Assembly (NCBI GenBank): GCA_036005065.1
Contig: DASYQW010000162.1
Coordinates: 1 to 38,422, forward strand
Origin: Candidatus Methylomirabilota bacterium
Lineage (GTDB): Bacteria > Methylomirabilota > Methylomirabilia > Rokubacteriales > DASRDR01
Reading direction: 5' to 3'
DNA: 38,422 nucleotides
Positions 18,431 to 34,344 of this stretch are shown piece after piece (position 1 is the stretch's first letter; the number at the start of each line of letters is the position of its first letter). Made by a program: the position numbers and the translations under genes. The notes under the pieces are model-generated. The model was not told the origin of the DNA and did no database searches. It worked only from the letters and a program-made list of their open reading frames with translations.

Positions 18431-21400
18431 ATGATGCGCGAAGTACAGACCGCCCTGAAAGAGCTCCGGACCGCGAACCCCCTTCTCGACAGACCCAGGC
18501 CGCCGGCGCTCGAGCGGCGCCACCGGCTGCAGAAGGTACTCGTCGCGAACCGGGGCGAGATCGCCAAGCAGTTCTTCTTCGTCCTGAAGGAGGAAGGGAT
18601 CTCCTCGGTGGCGGTCGTAACGGATCCCGACCGCAGGCAGTCCTGGTACGAGTTCGCCGACGAGGTCGTGTATATCGGCGATGCCCGGAACTACACGAGC
18701 ATCCCCGTCGTCCTGGCCGCGGTTCTTCTGTCGAAGGCGAACGCCGTCTATCCCGGCTACGGATTCATCTCCGAGAGCCACCAGTTCGTCGAGGCGATCT
18801 CCGAGTTGTCCCGAGCCCAGGGGCGGGACATCGTGTTTCTCGGGCCGCGGGCGGAGGTGATGCGCCGGGTGGGAAACAAGCTCGACGCCCGCGCTCTGGC
18901 CAAGGCGAACGGCGTCCCTGTGCTCGAAGGGACGGAGTTGATCCGCGATCTGGACCATGCGAAGGCCGAGGCCGCGCGGATCGGATATCCCGTCATGGTC
19001 AAGCTGAACGCCGGCGGCGGCGGAAAAGGGATGGTCGCCGTTTACGACGAGGCCGAGCTCGCGAATGCCTACGAATCAGCCGGCCGGATCGGGCAATCGA
19101 TCTACGGCGACGGCTCCCTCTACCTGGAGACATACATCCGGCGCCCCGTGCACATCGAGGTGCAGATCTTCAACGAGGCGGCGGTGGGCATCCGGAAGTG
19201 CGCCGTTCAGCGGCGGAACCAGAAGATCATCGAGGAAACGGGCGATTTCTTTCTCGACACCCGAACGATGCTGAAGCTGTTGGCAACCGCCGAAAACATG
19301 GCGGCGATCTCGGGCTACGCGGACGGAGGCGGAGTCGGCACCGTGGAGTTCCTGTTCGACGCCGCCACCCGGGATTTCGGCTTCCTCGAGATCAACACCC
19401 GCCTCCAGGTCGAATACCCCGTGACCGACCAGAGCCTGGGCATCGACCTGGCGAAATGGCAGATCCTCTACTTCGACGGCCGGGAAAGCGAGATACCGTA
19501 CTATCAGGTCCGCTTCGCGGAAAAGGACCACGCGATCGAATGCCGTATCTACGCGGAAGACCCCTGGAACAACTACGCCCCGAGCCCGGGCGTCATTCAG
19601 GACCTCGATCTACCCACCTTCAACGGAATCCGCTGCGACGTCGGCTTCAAGAAGGGAGACACCGTACTGCCCGATTACGATCCCATGATCGGGAAGCTCA
19701 TCGCGCGCGGCACGAACCGAAAAGAGTGCCTCCTGCGGTTGGAGCGAGCCCTGAGCGAGCTGTACATCCGCGGGATCACCACGAACGTCGATCAGCTTCT
19801 CAAGATCGTCCGGCATCCCGAGTTCAAGAGCGGCACCTACACGAACCGGCTCCTGGAGGACTCGGAGGAGCTTCAGTCCCCGGAAACGGACGCCGAGCGA
19901 CCCGTCGATGCGGCGGTCTTCTGCGGTCTGGCCGAGCTGGCGCACACCATTCACCAGGCGCTGGAGGACTGTCTGTCCTCGAAGGACCTCGAAGATATCC
20001 TGCTGGAAGGGAGTCTGTCCCTGTCGCCCTCTTTCTACGCCGAGGTCCACGGGAAGCGAATCCGCGTGGACGTCGTGCAGCTCGGGGTCGAGACGTTCGG
20101 CGCCTTCGTGAACAACGTCTACTTCGGCGAAATGCAGATCTCGCGGCGAGTCGAGGGGTACGACGATTTCTTGATCCTCTTTCACGGGCGATCCTACCCC
20201 GTCCGGATCGACCGCCGGCCATCCTTTCACATGCTGCGGGTGATGGAGGAAGATGGCCGGATCCACTATTACCGGATCAAGCTGGAGGCGGCGGGGACCA
20301 GGCGGAAGGCCGATTCTCCGGGGACGGTCCGGTCGCCCTTCCAGGGCTCTTTCGTCGAGTTCGCCGCCGACAAAAGCGGCCAACGGATCCGAATCGGCAG
20401 CCGGATCGAGCGAGGAGAGCCGTTGATCGTGATCGCGGCGATGAAGATGGAGACCGTCCTCTCGTCGCCCGTATCGGGGGTCGTGAGCTATCTGGTGGAG
20501 GACGGCGATCTCTCCCGGCTGGTCCGAGGCACGACCTCCCAGGGGCTGATCCTCGGAAAGGCCCTGACCGAAGGCGAGATCCTGATCATCGTCGACGAGG
20601 AATCGGCGAGGCCGGCGAAGGACCCCGAGCCGGACGCCGTCGAGATCCGCGGGGAGCCCCACGAGATTCTGGGGCGCCTGCGAGATCCGGAGCTGCCGGA
20701 TGGGGGCCTCGGCGAAGCCGCTCGGGTGAATCCCTCCGGCGCCGTGCCTTCGATCCTGTCCCTGGTCCGGTCCTTCTACCTGGGATACCTCCAGGACGAC
20801 GAGATCCCGGCACGACTGGGACGGTTCCTCGAGGACCTGAAGGGGTCCGGGATCCCGATCGACACCTGCGAAGAGATCATCACCGACATTCTCGATGTCT
20901 ATGCCTCCCTCAAGCAGATCTATTCTCCCACGCTGGGAGGCAGCCAGACCTGGTTCGGGGAGATGAATCGCCTGGTGCTGGAATGGGAGAACGAAACCTA
21001 TACGCCTCCCGACTTCTTCCGTTCCGTCCTCGGCTTCCTCTTGCGGAGATACGGGATCTCGTGGTCCGGAGGCAAGCGAAGCGCCGAGATGAAGCTCGCC
21101 CTCTTTCACATCCTTCGGGCCTATTGCGCCATCCGCGACGGGAGAAGCTTGATCGCCGCGCTCCTCGAGCTTCTTCGGGAACGCTCCTTTACCGCGCCGG
21201 GTGTGCTGGCTTCCGTGAGCAACCTTGTCCGCCAGGAACAGTCGGAACGGGACGATTCTCTCGTGGTGCTCGGTCGGGCGTTCCTTTTGGGCGCAGCGGC
21301 TCGGGACCCTGGCCGCGTCGTTCTCGAAGAGAGCGGGGCGGCCCGACCCCACCCGAGCGAGCTGGAGGACGTCGCGCAGAACCCCTTCCTTACCCTCCCG

Positions 21401-24247
21401 GGCGACGACGGAAGCTTCCGCGAACGGGCGATGGCCGCTCTGCGGAGCCCCGAAGCGGATCCCGTTCCGGCGGCTCTTCCCTCCTGGGTGCGGCAGGAGC
21501 TCGACGCGCGAATGCGACTGTGGTCCGGTCGATTTCGAATCGAGCGCCTGCCGTCTTCGAGTCCCACCGTCGTCGTGTATCGACTGACGCCGCTCGAGCG
21601 GGGAGTTCCCGCTTATGCGAGCATCGCCTGGCTCGAGGACGGGGCGCCGTTGCCCGTCTCCGATTCCCGGGGACGCATCGTCTCCGCCCCGAACCTGGAG
21701 AAGGCGGCCGCCCAGGCGGGTCGTTTCCTGGCGGCCTACGACAGGCTGGCCAGAGGCGAAAAGAACCTCGTGGAGATTCTCGCCTGCGGACGGCCGGTCG
21801 AGATGGATCTCGCGGGAAGCGATCCCTCCGTCTTCCAGTACGAGAACCTCGGCCAGATCATGGGGAGGGCCGTCCGCCTCGTGCGCCACGCGAGGCCGGA
21901 GTGGGTCCTTCTGCAGGTCGACGCGAGGCGGCCGGGCCGCCCGAAGGCGGAACGGAAGGTCCTGAACGTCGATCTCGAGCACGGCCGGCCGCGCCTGGAC
22001 CTTCTGCACGAAACCGACCGCCTGAATCCCCTCTGGAACGGCGTCCTCGACGAGAAGAACCAGCGGCTGTTCGATCGGCGCAAGTGGCCCGCTGAGGTCT
22101 GGGCGCAGGAGTGCTTCGACCCGGGCACGGTGCGGGAGGTCCTGATCGAGTCCATCGACGGGATCGGCGAATCGGCGAATCGAAACGCGGGGAGGAACCC
22201 CGTGGCGGCGAAGATCTATGAGGGCCTGATGGCGGGCCGGCCGGCCGTATTCTTCGTCAAGGATTCGCGCATCAGCGGCGGCGCCACCGGGGACCTCGAA
22301 GGGCGGAAATACGCGGCGGCCTGTTACTATGCCTATCTCAAGGACACGCCCCTCTACGTCTGGAACGACGGCGCGGGCGCGAACGTCCGGCAGGGCATGG
22401 TTTCGCTCAACCGCGCGGCCGAGGGCTTCATGCTGAACAGCCTCATCGCCCACGGCGTGAGCTACGACCGGTTCCTGTCAACCGCTCGAAGCTCCGACGA
22501 CCCCGTGCTTCGCGACCTCTTCCACGAGCTCGACCGCGCCTTCGGGCTCGCGAAATCGGCGAACGCGAAACGAGGGCCGCGCTCCTTCTTCCTGGTAGCG
22601 GTGGGCGTCGGCTCCTCGAGCGGGCTGGACGTGTACGGATCCTCCCAGGCCGCCATCCAGATCATCCTCGACTCCGAGCAGTCCTACCGCGTTCTGACGG
22701 GGTCGAACGTGATCCGGTCCGTGACCGGCGAGCAGCTGACCAACTACGAAATCGGGGGCGCCCGGGTCATGGGCCAGTGGACCGGCACGGTGGATCTGGT
22801 CGCTCGCGACCGGATCGACCTGCTCGGCCGGATCCGGCGCATCCACGAGCTGTTCGCGGACGGTGCGAGCCGAGCCGGAATCGCCCGGGCGCCCGGCGGA
22901 TCCTCCCCAGATCCGGATAGCACCACCGACGCCGTGCTGAACGAGCGCCGGATCAGCGCCAACGTCGACAGCGGGACCTTCATGCCCTTCAAAGGGGAGT
23001 ACGTGGAGGCTGGAGCCCTGGTCGGCGGCTTCGCGAAACTCGGGCGGAAACACGTCCTCCTGATGGGCCCGCGGACAGACTCGGGCATTCGCTCCTTCGC
23101 AAGCGTCGTGCGGGCCAAAGAGCTTCTGCAAATCGCGAACAAGACCCGGTCGCCGAAGATCCTGGTCTTCGGCCGAAGATGGTACCGAAGCATCGAGGGC
23201 GAGGACGAGATGGCGATCCAGGCGCGGATGGATTTCGTCCGTCTCCTCTTCGGTCCGGGGCCGCCCCGCGTCCACATCGTCACCCATCCGGAGGGCCTCC
23301 GGCTCGTCACCCTCAACAGCCAGGCGGACGCGGTCATCTACGTGAAGCGGACCGACGATTCGGAGAAGGATCGGCGGCTCGCCCTGAGGACTGCGCCCTT
23401 CCAGGCCGACAGCCTGGAGGACGCCTTCGATCTGGCGAACCGTGTCCTCGGCCTTCTCGGCGCCAAGGGCGGGTCTCTCGCATTCGATCCGCCCACGGGG
23501 GCTCCAGACATCCCGGCCGAGACGTGGCGACCCTACGACATGGTGACGGCCGTCATCGAGGCCGTGTTCGACGCTGGCACGTTCCTCGAGTTCTACGGTG
23601 AAGGACGGCGGGCTGGAGCGTCGACGCTCATCACCGGGCTGGCCACGCTGAACGGGAAGGTCGTCGGCGTGATCGCGGACCAGCCGCTCGGCGGCGGTGC
23701 TCCGGACGCGCCCGGAACCGAAAAGTTCCGCGTGTTCATGGAGTTCCTCGACCGGAACGGGATCCCGCTGGTCATGCTCTCGAATGCCCCCGGTTTCGTT
23801 CCCGGCACGAAGCAGGAGCGCCTTCGCATCCAGCAGATCGGCGGCGAATCTCTGGATGTCAACGTCCTCAGCCGCGTCCCCGTCGTCTCCGTTGTCCTGA
23901 ACCAGAACTTCGGCGGCCGGCAGATCCACGCGTTCAGCCGGTTCCTGAGGCCCGGCATCACCTACATCGCGCTCGACCGGGCCATCCTCGCCGTCATGGG
24001 GGGATCGGCGGCCTTCGACCTCTTCCACGGGGCCCGGTACGCCGAGCTCGTGTCGCAAGGCAGAAAAGAGGAGGCCGACCGGCTCCGGAACGAGTACCTC
24101 GAGGAATTCAACCGCAGGAGCCGGGCCGATCGCGACGCGATGGAAACCGGCGCCCTCGACTGGACCGTGCCCGACCTCGCGGATCTGCGGTCACACGTCG
24201 TTCGCGCGCTGGAGGTCGCCGAGGCGAAAGCCCGGGCCGCCTTCTAA
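18431..24247 (+). CDS. Single-chain multidomain biotin-dependent acyl-CoA carboxylase
   Basis: A 1938-residue protein uniting all carboxylase steps. Residues about 34-475: biotin carboxylase, with LVANRGEIA, the ATP-grasp loop VKLNAGGGGKGM, HIEVQIF, EINTRLQVEYP and IECRIYAEDP. In the QRRNQKIIEE segment an Asn replaces the usual His of QRRHQK. About 490-630: linker/BT-like region. About 633-715: biotin carrier domain with AAMKMETVLSSP; the biotinylated Lys is Lys672. About 720-1130: a largely helical middle region without a recognised domain. About 1230-1938: carboxyltransferase halves (FFVKDSRISGGATGD, VWNDGAGANVRQGM; IADQPLGGGAP, NQNFGGRQIHAFSRF). The order BC-BCCP-middle-CT resembles eukaryotic acetyl-CoA carboxylase more than the usual multi-subunit bacterial enzymes. 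The CoA substrate (acetyl, propionyl or longer) cannot be read. It is monocistronic with its own promoter and lies between repeat copies B and C. Confidence 0.9.
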   Translation: MMREVQTALKELRTANPLLDRPRPPALERRHRLQKVLVANRGEIAKQFFFVLKEEGISSVAVVTDPDRRQSWYEFADEVVYIGDARNYTSIPVVLAAVLLSKANAVYPGYGFISESHQFVEAISELSRAQGRDIVFLGPRAEVMRRVGNKLDARALAKANGVPVLEGTELIRDLDHAKAEAARIGYPVMVKLNAGGGGKGMVAVYDEAELANAYESAGRIGQSIYGDGSLYLETYIRRPVHIEVQIFNEAAVGIRKCAVQRRNQKIIEETGDFFLDTRTMLKLLATAENMAAISGYADGGGVGTVEFLFDAATRDFGFLEINTRLQVEYPVTDQSLGIDLAKWQILYFDGRESEIPYYQVRFAEKDHAIECRIYAEDPWNNYAPSPGVIQDLDLPTFNGIRCDVGFKKGDTVLPDYDPMIGKLIARGTNRKECLLRLERALSELYIRGITTNVDQLLKIVRHPEFKSGTYTNRLLEDSEELQSPETDAERPVDAAVFCGLAELAHTIHQALEDCLSSKDLEDILLEGSLSLSPSFYAEVHGKRIRVDVVQLGVETFGAFVNNVYFGEMQISRRVEGYDDFLILFHGRSYPVRIDRRPSFHMLRVMEEDGRIHYYRIKLEAAGTRRKADSPGTVRSPFQGSFVEFAADKSGQRIRIGSRIERGEPLIVIAAMKMETVLSSPVSGVVSYLVEDGDLSRLVRGTTSQGLILGKALTEGEILIIVDEESARPAKDPEPDAVEIRGEPHEILGRLRDPELPDGGLGEAARVNPSGAVPSILSLVRSFYLGYLQDDEIPARLGRFLEDLKGSGIPIDTCEEIITDILDVYASLKQIYSPTLGGSQTWFGEMNRLVLEWENETYTPPDFFRSVLGFLLRRYGISWSGGKRSAEMKLALFHILRAYCAIRDGRSLIAALLELLRERSFTAPGVLASVSNLVRQEQSERDDSLVVLGRAFLLGAAARDPGRVVLEESGAARPHPSELEDVAQNPFLTLPGDDGSFRERAMAALRSPEADPVPAALPSWVRQELDARMRLWSGRFRIERLPSSSPTVVVYRLTPLERGVPAYASIAWLEDGAPLPVSDSRGRIVSAPNLEKAAAQAGRFLAAYDRLARGEKNLVEILACGRPVEMDLAGSDPSVFQYENLGQIMGRAVRLVRHARPEWVLLQVDARRPGRPKAERKVLNVDLEHGRPRLDLLHETDRLNPLWNGVLDEKNQRLFDRRKWPAEVWAQECFDPGTVREVLIESIDGIGESANRNAGRNPVAAKIYEGLMAGRPAVFFVKDSRISGGATGDLEGRKYAAACYYAYLKDTPLYVWNDGAGANVRQGMVSLNRAAEGFMLNSLIAHGVSYDRFLSTARSSDDPVLRDLFHELDRAFGLAKSANAKRGPRSFFLVAVGVGSSSGLDVYGSSQAAIQIILDSEQSYRVLTGSNVIRSVTGEQLTNYEIGGARVMGQWTGTVDLVARDRIDLLGRIRRIHELFADGASRAGIARAPGGSSPDPDSTTDAVLNERRISANVDSGTFMPFKGEYVEAGALVGGFAKLGRKHVLLMGPRTDSGIRSFASVVRAKELLQIANKTRSPKILVFGRRWYRSIEGEDEMAIQARMDFVRLLFGPGPPRVHIVTHPEGLRLVTLNSQADAVIYVKRTDDSEKDRRLALRTAPFQADSLEDAFDLANRVLGLLGAKGGSLAFDPPTGAPDIPAETWRPYDMVTAVIEAVFDAGTFLEFYGEGRRAGASTLITGLATLNGKVVGVIADQPLGGGAPDAPGTEKFRVFMEFLDRNGIPLVMLSNAPGFVPGTKQERLRIQQIGGESLDVNVLSRVPVVSVVLNQNFGGRQIHAFSRFLRPGITYIALDRAILAVMGGSAAFDLFHGARYAELVSQGRKEEADRLRNEYLEEFNRRSRADRDAMETGALDWTVPDLADLRSHVVRALEVAEAKARAAF

Positions 24248-24349: not shown

Positions 24350-25357
24350 TTAGTCCGAGGGGCTCCTGGTACTATCGCGCTGCCGGTCCAGCTTCTCTCG
24401 AATCCTGCCGAAGGCCTCGAGATCCCGCCGGAGGTCGGGATGGCCGATCCGCTTGTCGATGGCGACGACCTCCTCCATGAGGCGGAGGGCCTCCCGATAC
24501 TCCCCCCGCGCTTCGTGGATCAGGGCCATATTATGGGCGGGGATGGTGGCCCGGAGCAGGTCGCCCGACGCCTCGATCAGGCGCCGGGCCGTGGCGTACC
24601 GTTGATAAGCCCCCTCGAGGTCTCCCAGTCGCCGCTGGACCAGGCCGAGGCTGTTGAGCGTCACGGCCACGCCCGTGGGGTCTTCTGCCCTCTCGTAGAG
24701 CGCCAGGGCCTGCTCGAGAGCCCCGAGGGCCTCTGACCAATTCTCGCGGCGGAGATGTAGACCGCCGATGTTCGCCAGGGTGACGGCCCGACCGAGCGTA
24801 TCCCCGAGCCTTTCCTGCATCTGGAGACTTTTCGTGAAGGCCTCCAGAGCTCCCGAGACATCGCCCATCCGCGCCTTCACCGTCCCGATGTTGTTCCAGG
24901 TCAGCGTGAGGCCCCGCTCGTCTCGGAGCTCCGTCTTCAGCGCGAGGCTTTCCTCGTAGGTTTCGAGGGCCTTGCGAAAGGCGCCTTTCCCCTGGAAGGC
25001 CTCGGCGATCGCGCCCAGTGTGATGGCGGTCCCCACCCGGTCACCCGCCTGCCCGTGCAGAGCCAATGCCCGATGATACAGCTCCAAGGCCCGGTCCCAG
25101 CCTCCCTGCAGATAATAGAGAAAGCCCAGCCGGTGGAGCGCCGGCGCCATCCCCGGCTCATCGGCGATGGTCCCGGCGACTCGGTAGGCCTGCTCCAGGG
25201 CGCTTCGCGCCAGTGCCTCGTCGGGCCCTTCCCTCAGAATCGTGGCCAACTGGGCGAGGGTTTCGACGAGGCCGACCCGGTTCCCATCGGCCTCCTGGGC
25301 CCGGGCCTGGGCCTCCAGGGCCTCCACCGCCTCCCGGGGAGCCTGCGGCGCCGGCAT
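24350..25357 (-). CDS. Tetratricopeptide repeat protein
   Basis: A 335-residue, nearly all-helical protein containing about six TPR-type units of roughly 40 residues (for example ALHRLGFLYYLQGGWDRALEL, TLGAIAEAFQGKGAFRKALE, TWNNIGTVKARMGDVSGALE, TLANIGGLHLRRENWSEALG, TLNSLGLVQRRLGDLEGAYQ). TPR arrays mediate protein-protein contacts. No signal peptide, enzyme domain or DNA-binding motif is visible. Its ATG overlaps the stop of the upstream 451-residue gene (TGATG), so it is translationally coupled to it and is the last cistron of the AAA+/VWA operon. A scaffold or adaptor role is inferred from that context. Confidence 0.85.
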   Translation of the reverse strand: MPAPQAPREAVEALEAQARAQEADGNRVGLVETLAQLATILREGPDEALARSALEQAYRVAGTIADEPGMAPALHRLGFLYYLQGGWDRALELYHRALALHGQAGDRVGTAITLGAIAEAFQGKGAFRKALETYEESLALKTELRDERGLTLTWNNIGTVKARMGDVSGALEAFTKSLQMQERLGDTLGRAVTLANIGGLHLRRENWSEALGALEQALALYERAEDPTGVAVTLNSLGLVQRRLGDLEGAYQRYATARRLIEASGDLLRATIPAHNMALIHEARGEYREALRLMEEVVAIDKRIGHPDLRRDLEAFGRIREKLDRQRDSTRSPSD

Positions 25358-26712
25358 CAGCCCTCCTCGGGCGCCGGGGCAAGCCGAAGGCCGGTCCCGA
25401 TGACCTCCCGGATTGCCAGAAAGCGGCCGGGCCTTTCCGCGTCCGGCACCATCTCCTCCAGCTCCAACATCATTCGAGTGACGTGCCGGTTCAGGCTCTG
25501 GAGATCGTCGGCATTCCGGAGCTCCATCATGCAGCGGTCGAGGGCGCGCTGATAGATCGGCTGGTGCGTCAGGCCGACCTGATAGGCTGGGTCGAAGAGG
25601 AGTTCGTACCGCTCCGTGAGCAGGAGGCGAGACAGGTGTCGGGCGGCTTGAAGCGAATCCATCGCCTCGTTGTCCGCCTCCAGGACGATGAACTTGTCCT
25701 TGAAGGGGAGGAGCTTCCACACCTGCGGGTTGATCGGTTCCCTTACCCACAGGCGTCCTGAGCGGTATCGAAGCGCGAAATCGCAGATCGTGCGGTCTCC
25801 AAGCCGCATCGACAGCCGGGGCAAGAGGGCGGTGAGTGCTTCCACGGGAATTTCGCCGAGGCTCTTGTACCTCGACCGGATGGGCGCGAGCTCTCGTCGT
25901 TGCTCCTCGAGCCCCATGAGCTCGAGAAGGACGCGGAGAGAGCTCTGGAGCTGCGAGAGATTCATCCCCCCGACCGCGTCCCTGATCTGTGGATTCAGCA
26001 CCTCGGGCAGTTCGGTCGGCGGCGTGCGCGGCCACGGCGCCATTCGCTCCCCGAAGAGATGGTCGAAGGGCGGAGTGAGGCCGACCCCCCGGCCAATCGC
26101 CTCCCGGAGGGTGGTCAACACGGGATCCACGGCCGAGGCGTCGCGGAAATCGCGACCGCTCAAGGCGGCGAGAGCCTGCTCCTTCAGTTCCTCGATTGCC
26201 GTGTCGCCGAGGCGTTGCAAGCTGTCGAGGACGTCGAGGTAGGCATTGAACTCGACCGCCGCCTCTCCGAGGCCGGGATCGTGGAAGAGGTTGAAATGGA
26301 GGCAGACGAAGAGCCTGGCCAGCTCCCGTCGAACCTGGTAAGGCTGCAAGGCTCTCGCATCCTGCTGCAAGAGTCCCCACTTCTCGGCGGCCGACATCGA
26401 CTGAAGCTCTTCATTGGTCAAGTCCTGCAGGCTCGTTCCGGGCGTGAACCGCTTCGCCTCCAAGGCCTGCAGGGCATGCGCGGTGTACCGCGAGACGAAG
26501 CCCTGCGCGACGTGCCGCATCTGATGCAGCTCGAGGTGTTCGCTGAAGTCGCCGAGCATCTCCTGCGCCGCCGTCGGGGAGAGGCAGTCCCGAAGCACTC
26601 GGACGGTCCACCGGAGCTCGGCTTCCTCCATGAAGGGAATCCGCTCCAGCAGCTCTTCGGCCCGCCGCTCGATGTACCGGCGCTGCGGGGCGATCCGTGA
26701 CGGCTCTTCCAT
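25357..26712 (-). CDS. Unknown 451-residue helical protein of the AAA+/VWA operon
   Basis: A long, predominantly helical soluble protein from ATG 26712, the first Met after the previous gene (38 nt gap). N-terminal region: RYIERRAEELLERIPFMEEA, then LSPTAAQEMLGDFSEHLELH and NLSQLQSSLRVLLELMG. The C-terminal third has a mixed segment (MRLGDRTICDFALRYRSGRL, LLPFKDKFIVLEADNEAMDS). No known catalytic motif, cysteine cluster or membrane helix. The start has only a weak ribosome binding site (GAG), so coupling to the upstream gene is likely. I do not recognise the family; its fixed place between the VWA gene and the TPR gene suggests a partner of the ATPase. Confidence 0.75.
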   Translation of the reverse strand: MEEPSRIAPQRRYIERRAEELLERIPFMEEAELRWTVRVLRDCLSPTAAQEMLGDFSEHLELHQMRHVAQGFVSRYTAHALQALEAKRFTPGTSLQDLTNEELQSMSAAEKWGLLQQDARALQPYQVRRELARLFVCLHFNLFHDPGLGEAAVEFNAYLDVLDSLQRLGDTAIEELKEQALAALSGRDFRDASAVDPVLTTLREAIGRGVGLTPPFDHLFGERMAPWPRTPPTELPEVLNPQIRDAVGGMNLSQLQSSLRVLLELMGLEEQRRELAPIRSRYKSLGEIPVEALTALLPRLSMRLGDRTICDFALRYRSGRLWVREPINPQVWKLLPFKDKFIVLEADNEAMDSLQAARHLSRLLLTERYELLFDPAYQVGLTHQPIYQRALDRCMMELRNADDLQSLNRHVTRMMLELEEMVPDAERPGRFLAIREVIGTGLRLAPAPEEG

Positions 26713-26750
26713 CTCACGCGCCTCGTTGGTCGTCTGTCGAGATTCGACGG

Positions 26751-27092
26751 TCAGATGGAGTCGGGACAGAAGATGGCCCAGGGGAAGTTGTAGTAGTCCT
26801 CGCCCATCCACTCGTCGATATGGGCCCCGTGCTCCCCGCGATAGGCGAAGTCGGCGTCGAACTCGTACGCGACGATCATCCGCTCTTCGAAATCGAAGTA
26901 GCGGATGGCGAAGCGCTCGCAGCCGTCGACATAGTGGGCGTCGATGGGACGGATGTCGGCGTGATCCATCCCCACCGCCCTCAGCAACTGGTAGAGGTCG
27001 TACCGCGTCCCCTGAATGGTCAGCTCGGTGAGGCCGCGCCCGATCTCCCCGAACCGCTCTTCCATGCGTTTCCGTTCCTGCCCTGGAACCAT
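26751..27092 (-). CDS. Unknown 113-residue acidic protein of the AAA+/VWA operon
   Basis: A short acidic protein, start ATG 27092 supported by GGAGGA 8 nt upstream. Conserved-looking segments are GLTELTIQGTRYDLYQLLRAVGM, the aromatic FAIRYFDFEERMIVAYEFDAD and the C-terminal DEWMGEDYYNFPWAIF (each given in part). There are no cysteine pairs, membrane helices or known motifs. It lies 65 nt after the VWA gene and 38 nt before the 451-residue gene on the same strand, so it belongs to that operon. Family not recognised; Met10 (27065) is a possible internal start. Confidence 0.7.
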   Translation of the reverse strand: MVPGQERKRMEERFGEIGRGLTELTIQGTRYDLYQLLRAVGMDHADIRPIDAHYVDGCERFAIRYFDFEERMIVAYEFDADFAYRGEHGAHIDEWMGEDYYNFPWAIFCPDSI

Positions 27093-27157: not shown

Positions 27158-28267
27158 TCAGTCGTCGAAATGGCGATCGCGGCCGATCGCCTCCAAGATG
27201 CGCTCGGCGCTGATCTCGTCCATGGGATAGAACTCGCCCCCCATGGCCGCGGCCAGTTCTTCGGCGGGCGCCAAGACATGCGGGTCTGACGTCCGCCGGC
27301 CCTGGCCGGCCGTGCCGAGGACGATGCTGCGGATCTTTCCGGCCCGGATGATCTCCCCGAGCCGAGCGGCTTCCTGGCCGGGCGCCGTGTCGCCCATCGA
27401 CACATTGGCCCGGCCGTCACTGATGAGGATGAGCACGGGGTTGAGCTTCCGTTCCTTGCGACGCTCCTGCTGGATCAGCTCGTAGCCGGTGAAGAGCCCC
27501 CTGGAAAGGGGCGTCGTGCCTCCGGTGGCCAGGGATTGGAAGGCCCTCTTGGCCAGCTCCACACTCGACGTCGGGCGCAGGATGACGGCGGCCGACTGCT
27601 CGCGAAAGGTGACCAGGCCCACCCGATCCCGGCGCTGGTAGGCATCTACCAGCAGGGACAGGATCGCCCCTCGAGTGGCGAGGAGCCGCCGCTGCGTGCC
27701 CATGGAGCCGCTGCAGTCCACCACGAAGAGGAGCAGATGGCCGACCTTGCGCTCTCGGACCTTGGCGTGGAGGTCCGAGGGCTCGACCTGGACAGCCATA
27801 TCCCGCGGCTCTCGGCGTTGCCGGTGCAGGGCGGCCGTACGGATCGTCGCATCGAGGGCAACGTCCCGGCTGAGGGGGCCGGCATGGAAGGCGCGGATGT
27901 AGCGGCCGCGGGCGAGCTCGGTCCGGGCGGTGCCCCGCTTGCCCGGCGTGTCCCGGCGTTGCCGCTCCTTCCGGGAGGTGAGCAGATGGGGGTTATGGCC
28001 CTCCATGATCCGCTGGAGTAGGACCTCGTCGAATTCGATCCTTTGCATCTCCCGATCGTAGGGTCGGTAGGGGCAATCATCCTGATCGCAGTGACACAGG
28101 CGGGCCGCTGCGCCGACGCTCCCCGCCCCGCCGGAGCCTCCACCCCCGCCTGGTCCCTCCCGGGGTCGGCGATCCGTGCTGTCGTGCGCCGTCCGGGACG
28201 CGCGGCTGACACCCGGGGAGTCTCTCGGATCGATGGCGGCCGAGACCGACGAGGCAGGCTCCGCGTC
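27158..28267 (-). CDS. VWA-domain part of an AAA+-VWA (ChlD/BchD-like) protein, reached by +1 frameshift
   Basis: Open from Asp codon GAC 28267 to the stop at 27158. It first encodes a 73-residue linker that turns Pro/Gly-rich (GPGGGGGSGGAGS) and ends with a Cys cluster CHCDQDDCPYRPYDRE, then 296 residues from Met 28048. The VWA domain shows the MIDAS signature DCSGSM (Asp111 from that Met), the Thr motif GGTTPLSRG and ISDGRANV. This matches the C-terminal half of Mg/Co-chelatase D subunits. The ATG at 28048 has no ribosome binding site except GGGAG directly against it; no ATG, GTG or TTG occurs in this frame between 28267 and 28048. Reading through the site at 28265-28280 would fuse it to the AAA+ protein (716 residues). 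An independent, shorter product from 28048 cannot be excluded. Confidence 0.85.
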   Translation of the reverse strand, partial: DAEPASSVSAAIDPRDSPGVSRASRTAHDSTDRRPREGPGGGGGSGGAGSVGAAARLCHCDQDDCPYRPYDREMQRIEFDEVLLQRIMEGHNPHLLTSRKERQRRDTPGKRGTARTELARGRYIRAFHAGPLSRDVALDATIRTAALHRQRREPRDMAVQVEPSDLHAKVRERKVGHLLLFVVDCSGSMGTQRRLLATRGAILSLLVDAYQRRDRVGLVTFREQSAAVILRPTSSVELAKRAFQSLATGGTTPLSRGLFTGYELIQQERRKERKLNPVLILISDGRANVSMGDTAPGQEAARLGEIIRAGKIRSIVLGTAGQGRRTSDPHVLAPAEELAAAMGGEFYPMDEISAERILEAIGRDRHFDD

Positions 28268-28280
28268 AAAGATGCCTCCT
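28265..28280 (-). promoter_or_regulatory. Programmed +1 ribosomal frameshift site, prfB-like
   Basis: Minus strand AGG AGG CAT CTT TGA C: a Shine-Dalgarno-like AGGAGG, a 3-nt gap, the slippery CTT and an in-frame TGA followed by C. The E. coli prfB (RF2) recoding site is AGGGGG TAT CTT TGA C, so only two bases differ. A +1 slip from CTT to TTT places the ribosome on GAC (28267), exactly the frame of the VWA gene, with 73 open codons before its first Met. Observed directly; frameshifting itself is inferred from the match. Confidence 0.88.
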
Positions 28281-29309
28281 TTCCAGGAATGCGCCGGTCA
28301 GACGATCCAGTGTCTTGGCATCCAGGGCGCTTTCCTGGAACGGCAGACGCTTGACGCGGTGGCGGAGGCTCAGCTCGACGATGTCCCGAAGATCCTGCGG
28401 GGCCGGCTCCTGCTGCCCCCGAAAAGCGGTCGCGGCCAGGCTCGCCTTCAGCATGGTGATCTCGGCCCGATGGCCGTCCACCTTCATCTCTTCGGCCACC
28501 TCGGCGACGAGTTCGATCAGCTCGTCGGCCGGGGTCAGAGCGGGGAGAAGCTCCCGAGCCCTGGCGATCTCGGCTTGGAGTATCTCTTGCGAGGCCTGCC
28601 ACTGCAGCCGGAACGCGTCCGCGTCGGTCTGGAAGGCCAGCGCGCGACGGGCGATCTCCTTGCGGTGCTCCCGGGACCGCTCGGTCTGGATCTCCACACA
28701 GAGGCCGAACCGGTCCAGGAGCTGTGGTCTCAGTTCCCCCTCCTCGGGATTCATGGTCCCCACCAGAATGAACCGGCACGGGTGGGCATAGCTCACGCCT
28801 TCCCGTTCCACCAGGTTGATCCCGGTGACGGCGACGTCGAGCAGGAGATCGACGATGTGGTCATCCAGGAGGTTCACCTCGTCGACGTACAGAATGGCCC
28901 GATGGGCCCGGGCCAGGATGCCGGGCTGGAAGGCCTTCTGCCCCCTCTTCAGTGCCGCCTCGATGTCGATGGATCCCACGACTCGGTCTTCCGAGGCATT
29001 CAGGGGGAGATCCACCACCGGAGTGGAGGTCTCGCTGAGCGATAGTGCTTCTCCCCTTTCCACCTTGGCCTGACACTCCGGGCAGAGGCCCTCTTTCTGG
29101 TCGGGGTGACAGGCGAACGCGCACCCGTGCACGACGAGGCGTGGCGGGAGGAGCTCGGCGATGCCCCGGACGGCGGTGGACTTGGCAGTGCCCTTTTGCC
29201 CGCGGATCAGAACCCCTCCGAGGCCAGGATCGATGGCATTGAAGACGAGCGCCTTCTTCATCGTGTCCTGGCCGAGGATCGCCGAGAACGGAAAGAGGGG
29301 TCGCTTCAC
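28266..29309 (-). CDS. AAA+ ATPase, Mg/Co-chelatase I-subunit type (ChlI/BchI-like)
   Basis: A 347-residue AAA+ ATPase of the chelatase I family. Walker A GQKGTAKST (residues 37-45), Walker B AILYVDEVNLL (138-148), the chelatase insert SIDIEAALKRGQKAFQPG and sensor region ILVGTMNPEEGELRPQLLDRFGL (in part). Four cysteines C63, C67, C76 and C79 (GCAFACHP, LCPECQ) form a probable metal site not needed for the core ATPase. The start is GTG 29309 with AAGGAG 6 nt upstream. The frame ends ERRHL-TGA at 28266, inside the prfB-like recoding site, so it can either terminate here or continue into the VWA part. No CobN/ChlH-type large chelatase subunit is in the window. Confidence 0.93.
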   Translation of the reverse strand: MKRPLFPFSAILGQDTMKKALVFNAIDPGLGGVLIRGQKGTAKSTAVRGIAELLPPRLVVHGCAFACHPDQKEGLCPECQAKVERGEALSLSETSTPVVDLPLNASEDRVVGSIDIEAALKRGQKAFQPGILARAHRAILYVDEVNLLDDHIVDLLLDVAVTGINLVEREGVSYAHPCRFILVGTMNPEEGELRPQLLDRFGLCVEIQTERSREHRKEIARRALAFQTDADAFRLQWQASQEILQAEIARARELLPALTPADELIELVAEVAEEMKVDGHRAEITMLKASLAATAFRGQQEPAPQDLRDIVELSLRHRVKRLPFQESALDAKTLDRLTGAFLERRHL

Positions 29310-33576: not shown

Positions 33577-34344
33577 ATGCACGTCCGCCGGGTCGCTGAT
33601 CTTCGGGCTTCTGACGGCTACTCGATCCCCGCCTATCTCCTCGAGCCTGATGCGGTGGCCCGCGGCGCGGCCGTCATCTGTCACGGCTACGGGAGCGCGA
33701 AGGCGGAGATGTTCGCGCTCGCCCTGGCCGTGGCCGAAGGCGCTCATTGCCGCGCGCTGTGCATCGACCTCCGGGGCCACGGGGAGAACCGCGCCCCGAT
33801 CGGCGCCGGGGTCCTGACCGACGTGCAGGCCGCGCTCGGCTACCTCTCGGCCGACGGTCCGGTCGTGGCCATCGGCCACAGCCTGGGTGGCCGGCTGGCC
33901 CTGATGACCGATGCCGACCTGGCGGTGGCCGTGTCGCCGGCGGCCGTGCAGGAGGTTTCCCCGCAGGGCCGCTGGATGTTCGAGAATTTCCCCAGCCCGC
34001 TCGTGCGAGAGCCCTACTCGGGTTACGTCGTCGAGCTACTCGAGCGCCTGGGCGACGTTCCGTCGCGCGCCGGGCCGTGCCTGCTGGTTCACGCCGCGCG
34101 CGATATCCCCAACATCATCGCCGGCACGCGGGAGCTCGCGGAGCGGCTGCCGGGGGCCACGGTGCATGAGGTCCGGGGTCATCTCCGGCCGGACGTCTCC
34201 TCCGAGAACGGGCTCGTCCGATACCTGCCCCGGTGGTACAACCACCTCGAGTTGAAGGTGAACCCGGAAGTCTTGTCGGTGGTGTCCGAGTGGGTGGGGG
34301 CGCGGCTGGGGGGACGTGACGCCGGCCGTCAGCCCGGCCGCTGA
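33577..34344 (+). CDS. Alpha/beta hydrolase
   Basis: A 255-residue alpha/beta-hydrolase-fold protein. The nucleophile elbow is GHSLGG (Ser in VVAIGHSLGGRLAL), the oxyanion region HGYGSAKAE and IDLRGHGENR precede it, and candidate acid and base are Asp in LLVHAARDIPNI and His in EVRGHLRPDV. These place it with small serine esterases/lipases or acyl-CoA thioesterase-like hydrolases; the substrate is unknown. No signal peptide. The ATG at 33577 lies directly after the tail of repeat copy E and no ribosome binding site is apparent. The C-terminus overlaps the convergent citrate synthase gene by 16 nt. Confidence 0.82.
   Translation: MHVRRVADLRASDGYSIPAYLLEPDAVARGAAVICHGYGSAKAEMFALALAVAEGAHCRALCIDLRGHGENRAPIGAGVLTDVQAALGYLSADGPVVAIGHSLGGRLALMTDADLAVAVSPAAVQEVSPQGRWMFENFPSPLVREPYSGYVVELLERLGDVPSRAGPCLLVHAARDIPNIIAGTRELAERLPGATVHEVRGHLRPDVSSENGLVRYLPRWYNHLELKVNPEVLSVVSEWVGARLGGRDAGRQPGR

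What the first reader, a model, noticed from the sequence alone, without database searches (positions are those of the whole stretch)
28265..28280. prfB-like programmed +1 frameshift joins a chelatase-type AAA+ ATPase to a VWA domain
The AAA+ frame ends AGG AGG CAT CTT TGA C on the minus strand, two bases different from the E. coli RF2 recoding site AGG GGG TAT CTT TGA C, including the Shine-Dalgarno-like hexamer at the same 3-nt distance. A +1 slip at CTT lands on GAC (28267), which is in frame with the VWA gene; I translated all 73 intervening codons and found no stop. No ATG, GTG or TTG exists in that frame before 28048. One locus thus appears to make a 347-residue I-like ATPase and a 716-residue I-D fusion, in a ratio set by release factor 2 competition. 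Frameshifting in chlD-type genes that yields two cobalt-chelatase subunits has been described, as far as I recall; a near-perfect copy of the prfB cassette used for it is worth documenting. A sequencing indel is an unlikely explanation because the full cassette is present.
Basis: partly seen in the sequence, partly recalled or inferred. Interest (0 to 1): 0.92.

Follow-up and report, generated by a model that had tools for sequence, protein, structure and literature searches.

The report
prfB-type +1 frameshift in chelatase-like gene
One bacterial gene appears to make two proteins, a short motor ATPase and a longer version with an extra metal-binding (VWA) domain, by using the ribosome-slipping signal otherwise known mainly from the release factor 2 gene; the signal is preserved in all five relatives whose junction could be read, so it is not a sequencing error.

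Summary
On the minus strand the ChlI-like AAA+ frame (29309-28266) ends AGGAGG-CAT-CTT-TGA-C, and a +1 slip at CTT enters the VWA frame (to 27158), giving 347- and 716-residue products. The VWA frame has no ATG/GTG/TTG before 28048, yet a conserved Cys motif is encoded upstream of that codon. Five relatives in the same phylum (61-81% AAA identity) keep GG[A/G]GG-N3-CTT-TGA at exactly this junction with VWA in +1. Of 164 residues invariant across five loci, His346 CAT and Leu347 CTT are the only codons identical in all five that end in A or T. The genome's own prfB carries GGGGGCATCTTTGAC. Indel or chance is excluded in practice; frameshifting itself is not measured. Programmed frameshifting in chlD is known (mostly -1 on A-runs; +1 reported as rarer). 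A prfB-type site there was not found in the papers I could read, but the key 2020 paper was not available. Relatives in other phyla are fused, -1, separate, or lack an adjacent VWA hit. No CobN/ChlH large subunit was detected in the seven genomes, and the gene sits in an unannotated conserved cluster, so a cobalt-chelatase role is not supported. RF2 dependence of the product ratio is inferred.

The parts
28266..29309 (-). Zero-frame ORF: ChlI/BchI-like AAA+ ATPase, 347 aa, GTG start at 29309, preceded by AGGAG (29320-29316)
   Evidence: Pfam Mg_chelatase / AAA_lid_2; TIGR02442 E=1e-141, TIGR02030 E=1.3e-123; PDB ChlI/BchI matches
28275..28280 (-). Internal Shine-Dalgarno-like AGGAGG, 3 nt before the slip codon
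   Evidence: predicted anti-SD duplex -11.6 kcal/mol against -10.6 for an E. coli prfB segment entered from memory
28272..28274 (-). Spacer codon CAT (His346), identical codon in five loci; CCC in L030
28268..28271 (-). Slippery CTT_T; Leu347 codon CTT identical in all six loci although CTT is a minor Leu codon in most of them
28265..28268 (-). TGA stop of the zero frame followed by C (weak termination context); C in the window, L002 and L032, G in L028, L029 and L030
27158..28267 (-). +1 frame: linker plus VWA domain, 369 codons, then stop
   Evidence: Pfam VWA_2 E=3.7e-13; TIGR02442 C-terminal part E=5.9e-70
28073..28096 (-). Conserved Cys motif (CHCDQDDC) in the linker, upstream of the first in-frame ATG (28048); indicates that the +1 frame is translated before that ATG
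   Evidence: difference rates at codon positions 1/2/3: 0.22/0.27/0.47 in close pairs
27701..27718 (-). MIDAS motif DCSGSM (DxSxS) of the VWA domain
26751..27092 (-). N113: 113-aa unannotated protein, downstream neighbour conserved in the cluster
25357..26712 (-). About 451-aa unannotated protein of the same cluster
   Evidence: 44% identical to the L128 homologue; no Pfam family
24350..25330 (-). TPR protein of the same cluster (start approximate)

Best explanation
This is a programmed +1 ribosomal frameshift site of the prfB (release factor 2) type in a chlD-like gene. Ribosomes that terminate at TGA make the 347-aa AAA+ (I-like) protein. Ribosomes held by AGGAGG pairing with 16S rRNA, with CTT in the P site and TGA waiting in the A site, slip +1 to TTT and make a 716-aa AAA+-linker-VWA (D-like) protein. 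One gene thus supplies both subunits of an I/D-type AAA+ ring in a set ratio. Shown: frame architecture, conservation of the cassette elements, lack of alternative starts in three loci, and coding constraint upstream of the first ATG. Inferred: that slipping occurs, its efficiency, its dependence on RF2, and assembly of the two products together.
For: Six loci of the phylum keep GG[A/G]GG-N3-CTT-TGA at the end of the AAA frame with VWA in +1. His346 CAT and Leu347 CTT are the only A/T-ending codons identical in all five full-length loci among 164 invariant residues; in L032 the site is the only CTT among 38 Leu codons of the AAA frame. L030 changes the spacer codon to CCC but keeps CTT-TGA. 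The host's prfB has GGGGGCATCTTTGAC, and the prfB of all seven genomes appears to use a CTTTGA +1 site (L114 and L117 read partly from the printed frames). The tree groups the six +1 loci as one clade, support 100/99. The frame change falls between the two halves of TIGR02442. No second ChlI-like gene was found in the genome; the only other hit is weak, 30% identity in a 518-aa frame. A prfB motif gives 52.7% frameshifting in B. subtilis (PMC12421855).
Against: No expression data. TGA is followed by G, not C, in L028, L029 and L030, which should terminate better. L002, L032 and L029 have GTG or TTG codons in the VWA frame near the site, so local initiation is not excluded there. Most loci come from draft MAGs.
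Confidence: 0.9

Rival explanations
1. Translational coupling: the VWA protein is made separately by reinitiation after the TGA, the AGGAGG acting as a ribosome binding site.
For: AGGAGG is a good SD; L032 has a GTG 10 nt after it, and L002 and L029 also have early GTG codons.
Against: The window, L028 and L030 have no ATG/GTG/TTG before the conserved Cys motif. Reinitiation would not explain why CTT is fixed in a GC-rich gene. The in-frame ATC within the cassette sits 1 nt from the SD and is absent in L030.
Confidence: 0.06
2. Assembly or sequencing indel, or a pseudogene with a real frameshift mutation.
For: Loci are mostly from draft MAGs.
Against: The same frame break at the same place in six loci from different genomes, relatives being 61-81% identical to the window in the AAA part; Walker and MIDAS motifs intact; constraint on both halves.
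Confidence: 0.01
3. Two independent genes: AAA+ alone, and a VWA protein starting at ATG 28048; the linker is untranslated.
For: Simple ORF calling gives exactly this.
Against: The Cys motif lies before 28048 and shows codon-position bias in the +1 frame; L028 and L030 have no ATG/GTG/TTG at that place.
Confidence: 0.03

Closest known systems
prfB (release factor 2) programmed +1 frameshift
   Same: Internal SD-like hexamer, 3-nt spacer, CTT_T slip, in-frame TGA, C after TGA (window), continuation in +1; the genome's own prfB carries GGGGGCATCTTTGAC
   Different: Sits after 347 codons of a folded, presumably functional ATPase instead of near the start of the gene; the product is not RF2, so there is no autoregulatory loop; SD is AGGAGG, a variant also seen in some prfB genes (PMC5009743)
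fs-chlD genes with -1 frameshifting (Antonov 2013, PMC3711429; Kuznetsov 2022, PMC9227772)
   Same: AAA+ and VWA halves of one chlD-like gene in two frames; short product I-like, long product D-like; separate small-subunit gene absent
   Different: Those sites are A-runs (A_AAA_AAR) and -1; 21 of the loci fetched here have the -1 frame relation with an A-run nearby, mostly Chloroflexota. PMC9227772 says +1 chlD cases exist but are less frequent, without giving their motif in the main text read
Fused putative cobaltochelatase subunit (TIGR02442), e.g. L033 and L035
   Same: Same domain order; best-scoring NCBIfam model for both halves
   Different: A single continuous ORF in those loci
Mg-chelatase ChlI/BchI and ChlD/BchD
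   Same: AAA+ fold, Walker motifs, VWA with MIDAS
   Different: Separate genes that work with ChlH, which was not detected in these genomes

Membership tests
prfB-type +1 recoding site | SD-like purine stretch 3 nt before the slip codon | tested here: met
   AGGAGG here; GG[A/G]GG in all six loci; duplex energies -8.6 to -11.6 kcal/mol
prfB-type +1 recoding site | CTT_T slippery sequence and RF2-specific TGA | tested here: met
   All six loci
prfB-type +1 recoding site | C after TGA | tested here: met
   Met in the window, L002 and L032; not met in L028, L029 and L030, which have G
prfB-type +1 recoding site | Slip efficiency depends on RF2 level | not testable with these tools
   Needs a reporter with RF2 depletion or overexpression
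fs-chlD (programmed-frameshift chelatase subunit gene) | AAA+ half and VWA half of a TIGR02442-like protein in two frames | tested here: met
fs-chlD (programmed-frameshift chelatase subunit gene) | -1 slip on an A-rich site (the experimentally tested form) | tested here: not met
   No A-run at the junction; direction +1
fs-chlD (programmed-frameshift chelatase subunit gene) | No separate small-subunit (ChlI) gene | tested here: met
   Only a weak 30% second hit in G000
Aerobic cobalt chelatase or Mg chelatase | CobN/ChlH large subunit in the genome | tested here: not met
   0 of 7 genomes match PF02514, three of them only 63-73% complete; positive in 5 of 14 control genomes

The most novel reading that the evidence does not exclude
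A prfB-type, RF2-sensitive frameshift cassette has been recruited outside prfB to fix the subunit ratio of an AAA+/VWA machine. Because RF2 holds itself at the level where its own cassette slips at a set rate, a near-identical cassette in another gene would read out that set point as a stable ratio. The machine belongs to an unannotated gene cluster and is not a tetrapyrrole chelatase.
Probability: 0.35. Interest if true: 0.78.

Novelty: new variant of a known kind. Interest (0 to 1): 0.62.

Why it matters
The CTT-TGA type of +1 frameshift is best known from prfB, where the product controls its own slip rate. A conserved copy of that cassette at a domain junction of an unrelated gene would show that the signal is portable, that the chlD family solved the same two-products-from-one-gene problem by two mechanisms (-1 A-run, +1 prfB-type), and that RF2 level could affect another protein's stoichiometry. 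It gives a simple, testable reporter system.

Tried and rejected
Composite pattern (AAA C-terminal codons plus cassette; matches all six known loci) in 400 Chloroflexota genomes and 395 of the Syntrophaceae locus's phylum: 3 hits, none chlD-like. L040, scored +1 by frame arithmetic, appears to be a separate gene with its own RBS and TTG, read by eye. The N113 model (pLDDT 79) gave no PDB match with E<=0.001. The model of the roughly 270-aa neighbour was too poor to use (pLDDT 41.5), so my impression that it is E2-like is unproven. Antonov 2020 (10.1093/molbev/msaa081) is not held. Folding energies of the 80 nt downstream were computed without a shuffle control, so no claim is made on a stimulatory structure.

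Full report
Observation. The minus strand of the window carries, at 28280-28265, AGG AGG CAT CTT TGA C. The AAA+ ORF (29309-28266, 347 aa) ends at this TGA; the +1 frame entered at GAC (28267) is open for 369 codons and encodes a VWA domain. The bare motif GGRGGNNNCTTTGA is not rare by itself: 4 hits in the 5.63 Mb assembly against 12 for the reversed control. Only two of the four lead into a long +1 coding frame: this gene and the genome's own prfB, which reads GGGGGCATCTTTGAC.

What it encodes. [quoted passage not shown] the VWA half matches the C-terminal part of TIGR02442. The frame change thus lies between the two domains. Scores are below the whole-protein cut-offs of these models, as expected for half proteins.

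Conservation. A search of 95 genomes of the phylum found the AAA gene in 7. I infer Methylomirabilota/Rokubacteria from the title of one relative, Candidatus Rokuibacteriota (L032). The junction is readable in the window and five others: L002, L003/L032, L028, L029, L030 (L031 is truncated). All end the AAA frame GG[A/G]GG-N3-CTT-TGA and continue in +1 into a VWA-type protein (L030 is cut by its contig end before the VWA core). In the five with a complete AAA frame, 164 residues other than Met and Trp are invariant; 32 use an identical codon in all five, and the only two of those ending in A or T are His346 CAT and Leu347 CTT, i.e. the cassette. CTT is a minor Leu codon in most of these genes, and the site is its only use among 38 Leu codons in the L032 AAA frame. 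L030 replaces CAT by CCC but keeps CTT-TGA, so the slip codon and not the spacer is what is held.

Against separate initiation. The window, L028 and L030 have no ATG, GTG or TTG in the +1 frame between the site and a conserved CxCDxDDC motif. In close pairs this motif region shows differences of 0.22, 0.27 and 0.47 per site at codon positions 1, 2 and 3, like a translated frame; the first part of the linker is weakly constrained (0.35, 0.35, 0.41). L002, L032 and L029 do have nearby GTG or TTG codons, so initiation there is not excluded by sequence alone.

Wider family. The 80 loci fetched from GTDB species include one of the six (L032); the others are fused ORFs, -1 arrangements with A-runs (mostly Chloroflexota), separate genes, or have no VWA hit within reach. 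The no-VWA class rests on a tblastn with the window-type VWA and may hide divergent ones, and the A-run label did not check the reading frame of the run. The six +1 loci form one clade with 100/99 support. A composite pattern found no chlD-like match in 400 Chloroflexota genomes and 395 of the Syntrophaceae locus's phylum.

Literature. PMC3711429 reports -1 frameshifting of 63, 40 and 10% for three magnesium-chelatase fs-genes in E. coli. PMC9227772 states that -1 is more frequent than +1 in chlD and does not describe the +1 motif in the text read. PMC12421855 gives the prfB consensus (SD approaching AGGGGG, CTTT three nt downstream, TGA in 98.6%, C after it) and 52.7% slipping in B. subtilis. 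The central paper, Antonov 2020, could not be read; the possibility that it already lists this motif is the main uncertainty on novelty.

Function. None of the seven genomes has a PF02514 (CobN/ChlH) match, while 5 of 14 control genomes do; three of the seven are only 63-73% complete. In the window the gene is followed by N113 (26751-27092), a roughly 451-aa protein and a TPR protein; homologues of these, with an alpha/beta hydrolase and another unannotated protein in some, cluster in several genomes of the phylum. N113 occurs in 21 of 95 genomes, the AAA gene in 7; in six N113 regions taken from genomes without the AAA gene, no AAA or VWA homologue lies on the stretch fetched. The cluster's biochemical role is unknown; I infer an AAA+/VWA machine acting on something other than a tetrapyrrole.

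Mechanism and limits. The best reading is prfB-type +1 slipping that yields I-like and D-like subunits from one gene. If the rate is like that of a prfB motif in B. subtilis, the two would be made in roughly equal amounts. Sequence shows the signal and its conservation; slipping, its rate, RF2 dependence and complex assembly are inferred.

Noticed in passing
window 24350-27092 (-); L128, L131, L151, L153: Unannotated conserved cluster: alpha/beta hydrolase, about 270-aa protein, N113, about 450-aa protein, TPR protein, with or without the AAA/VWA gene; apart from the hydrolase and TPR protein the members tested have no Pfam family above cut-off.
   Followed up: partly
L151:3427-5231, L153:2526-4294: Next to that cluster in two genomes lie a 388/378-aa protein with no Pfam hit (E2-like by eye only) and, in L151, a weak Prok-JAB match (E=0.011, below cut-off); a homologue of the latter is also in L129. 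A ubiquitin-like pathway link is possible but untested.
   Followed up: partly
window 33577-34344 (+): Alpha/beta hydrolase 45% identical to the hydrolase of the cluster in L128, here on the other strand several genes away.
   Followed up: no
window 18431-24247 (+): 1938-aa ORF joining biotin carboxylase, biotin carrier and carboxyltransferase domains in one frame.
   Followed up: no
L030 (G076:C215): The AAA N-terminus appears frame-broken (match starts at residue 43; the first part is in another frame), possibly an indel in that assembly.
   Followed up: no
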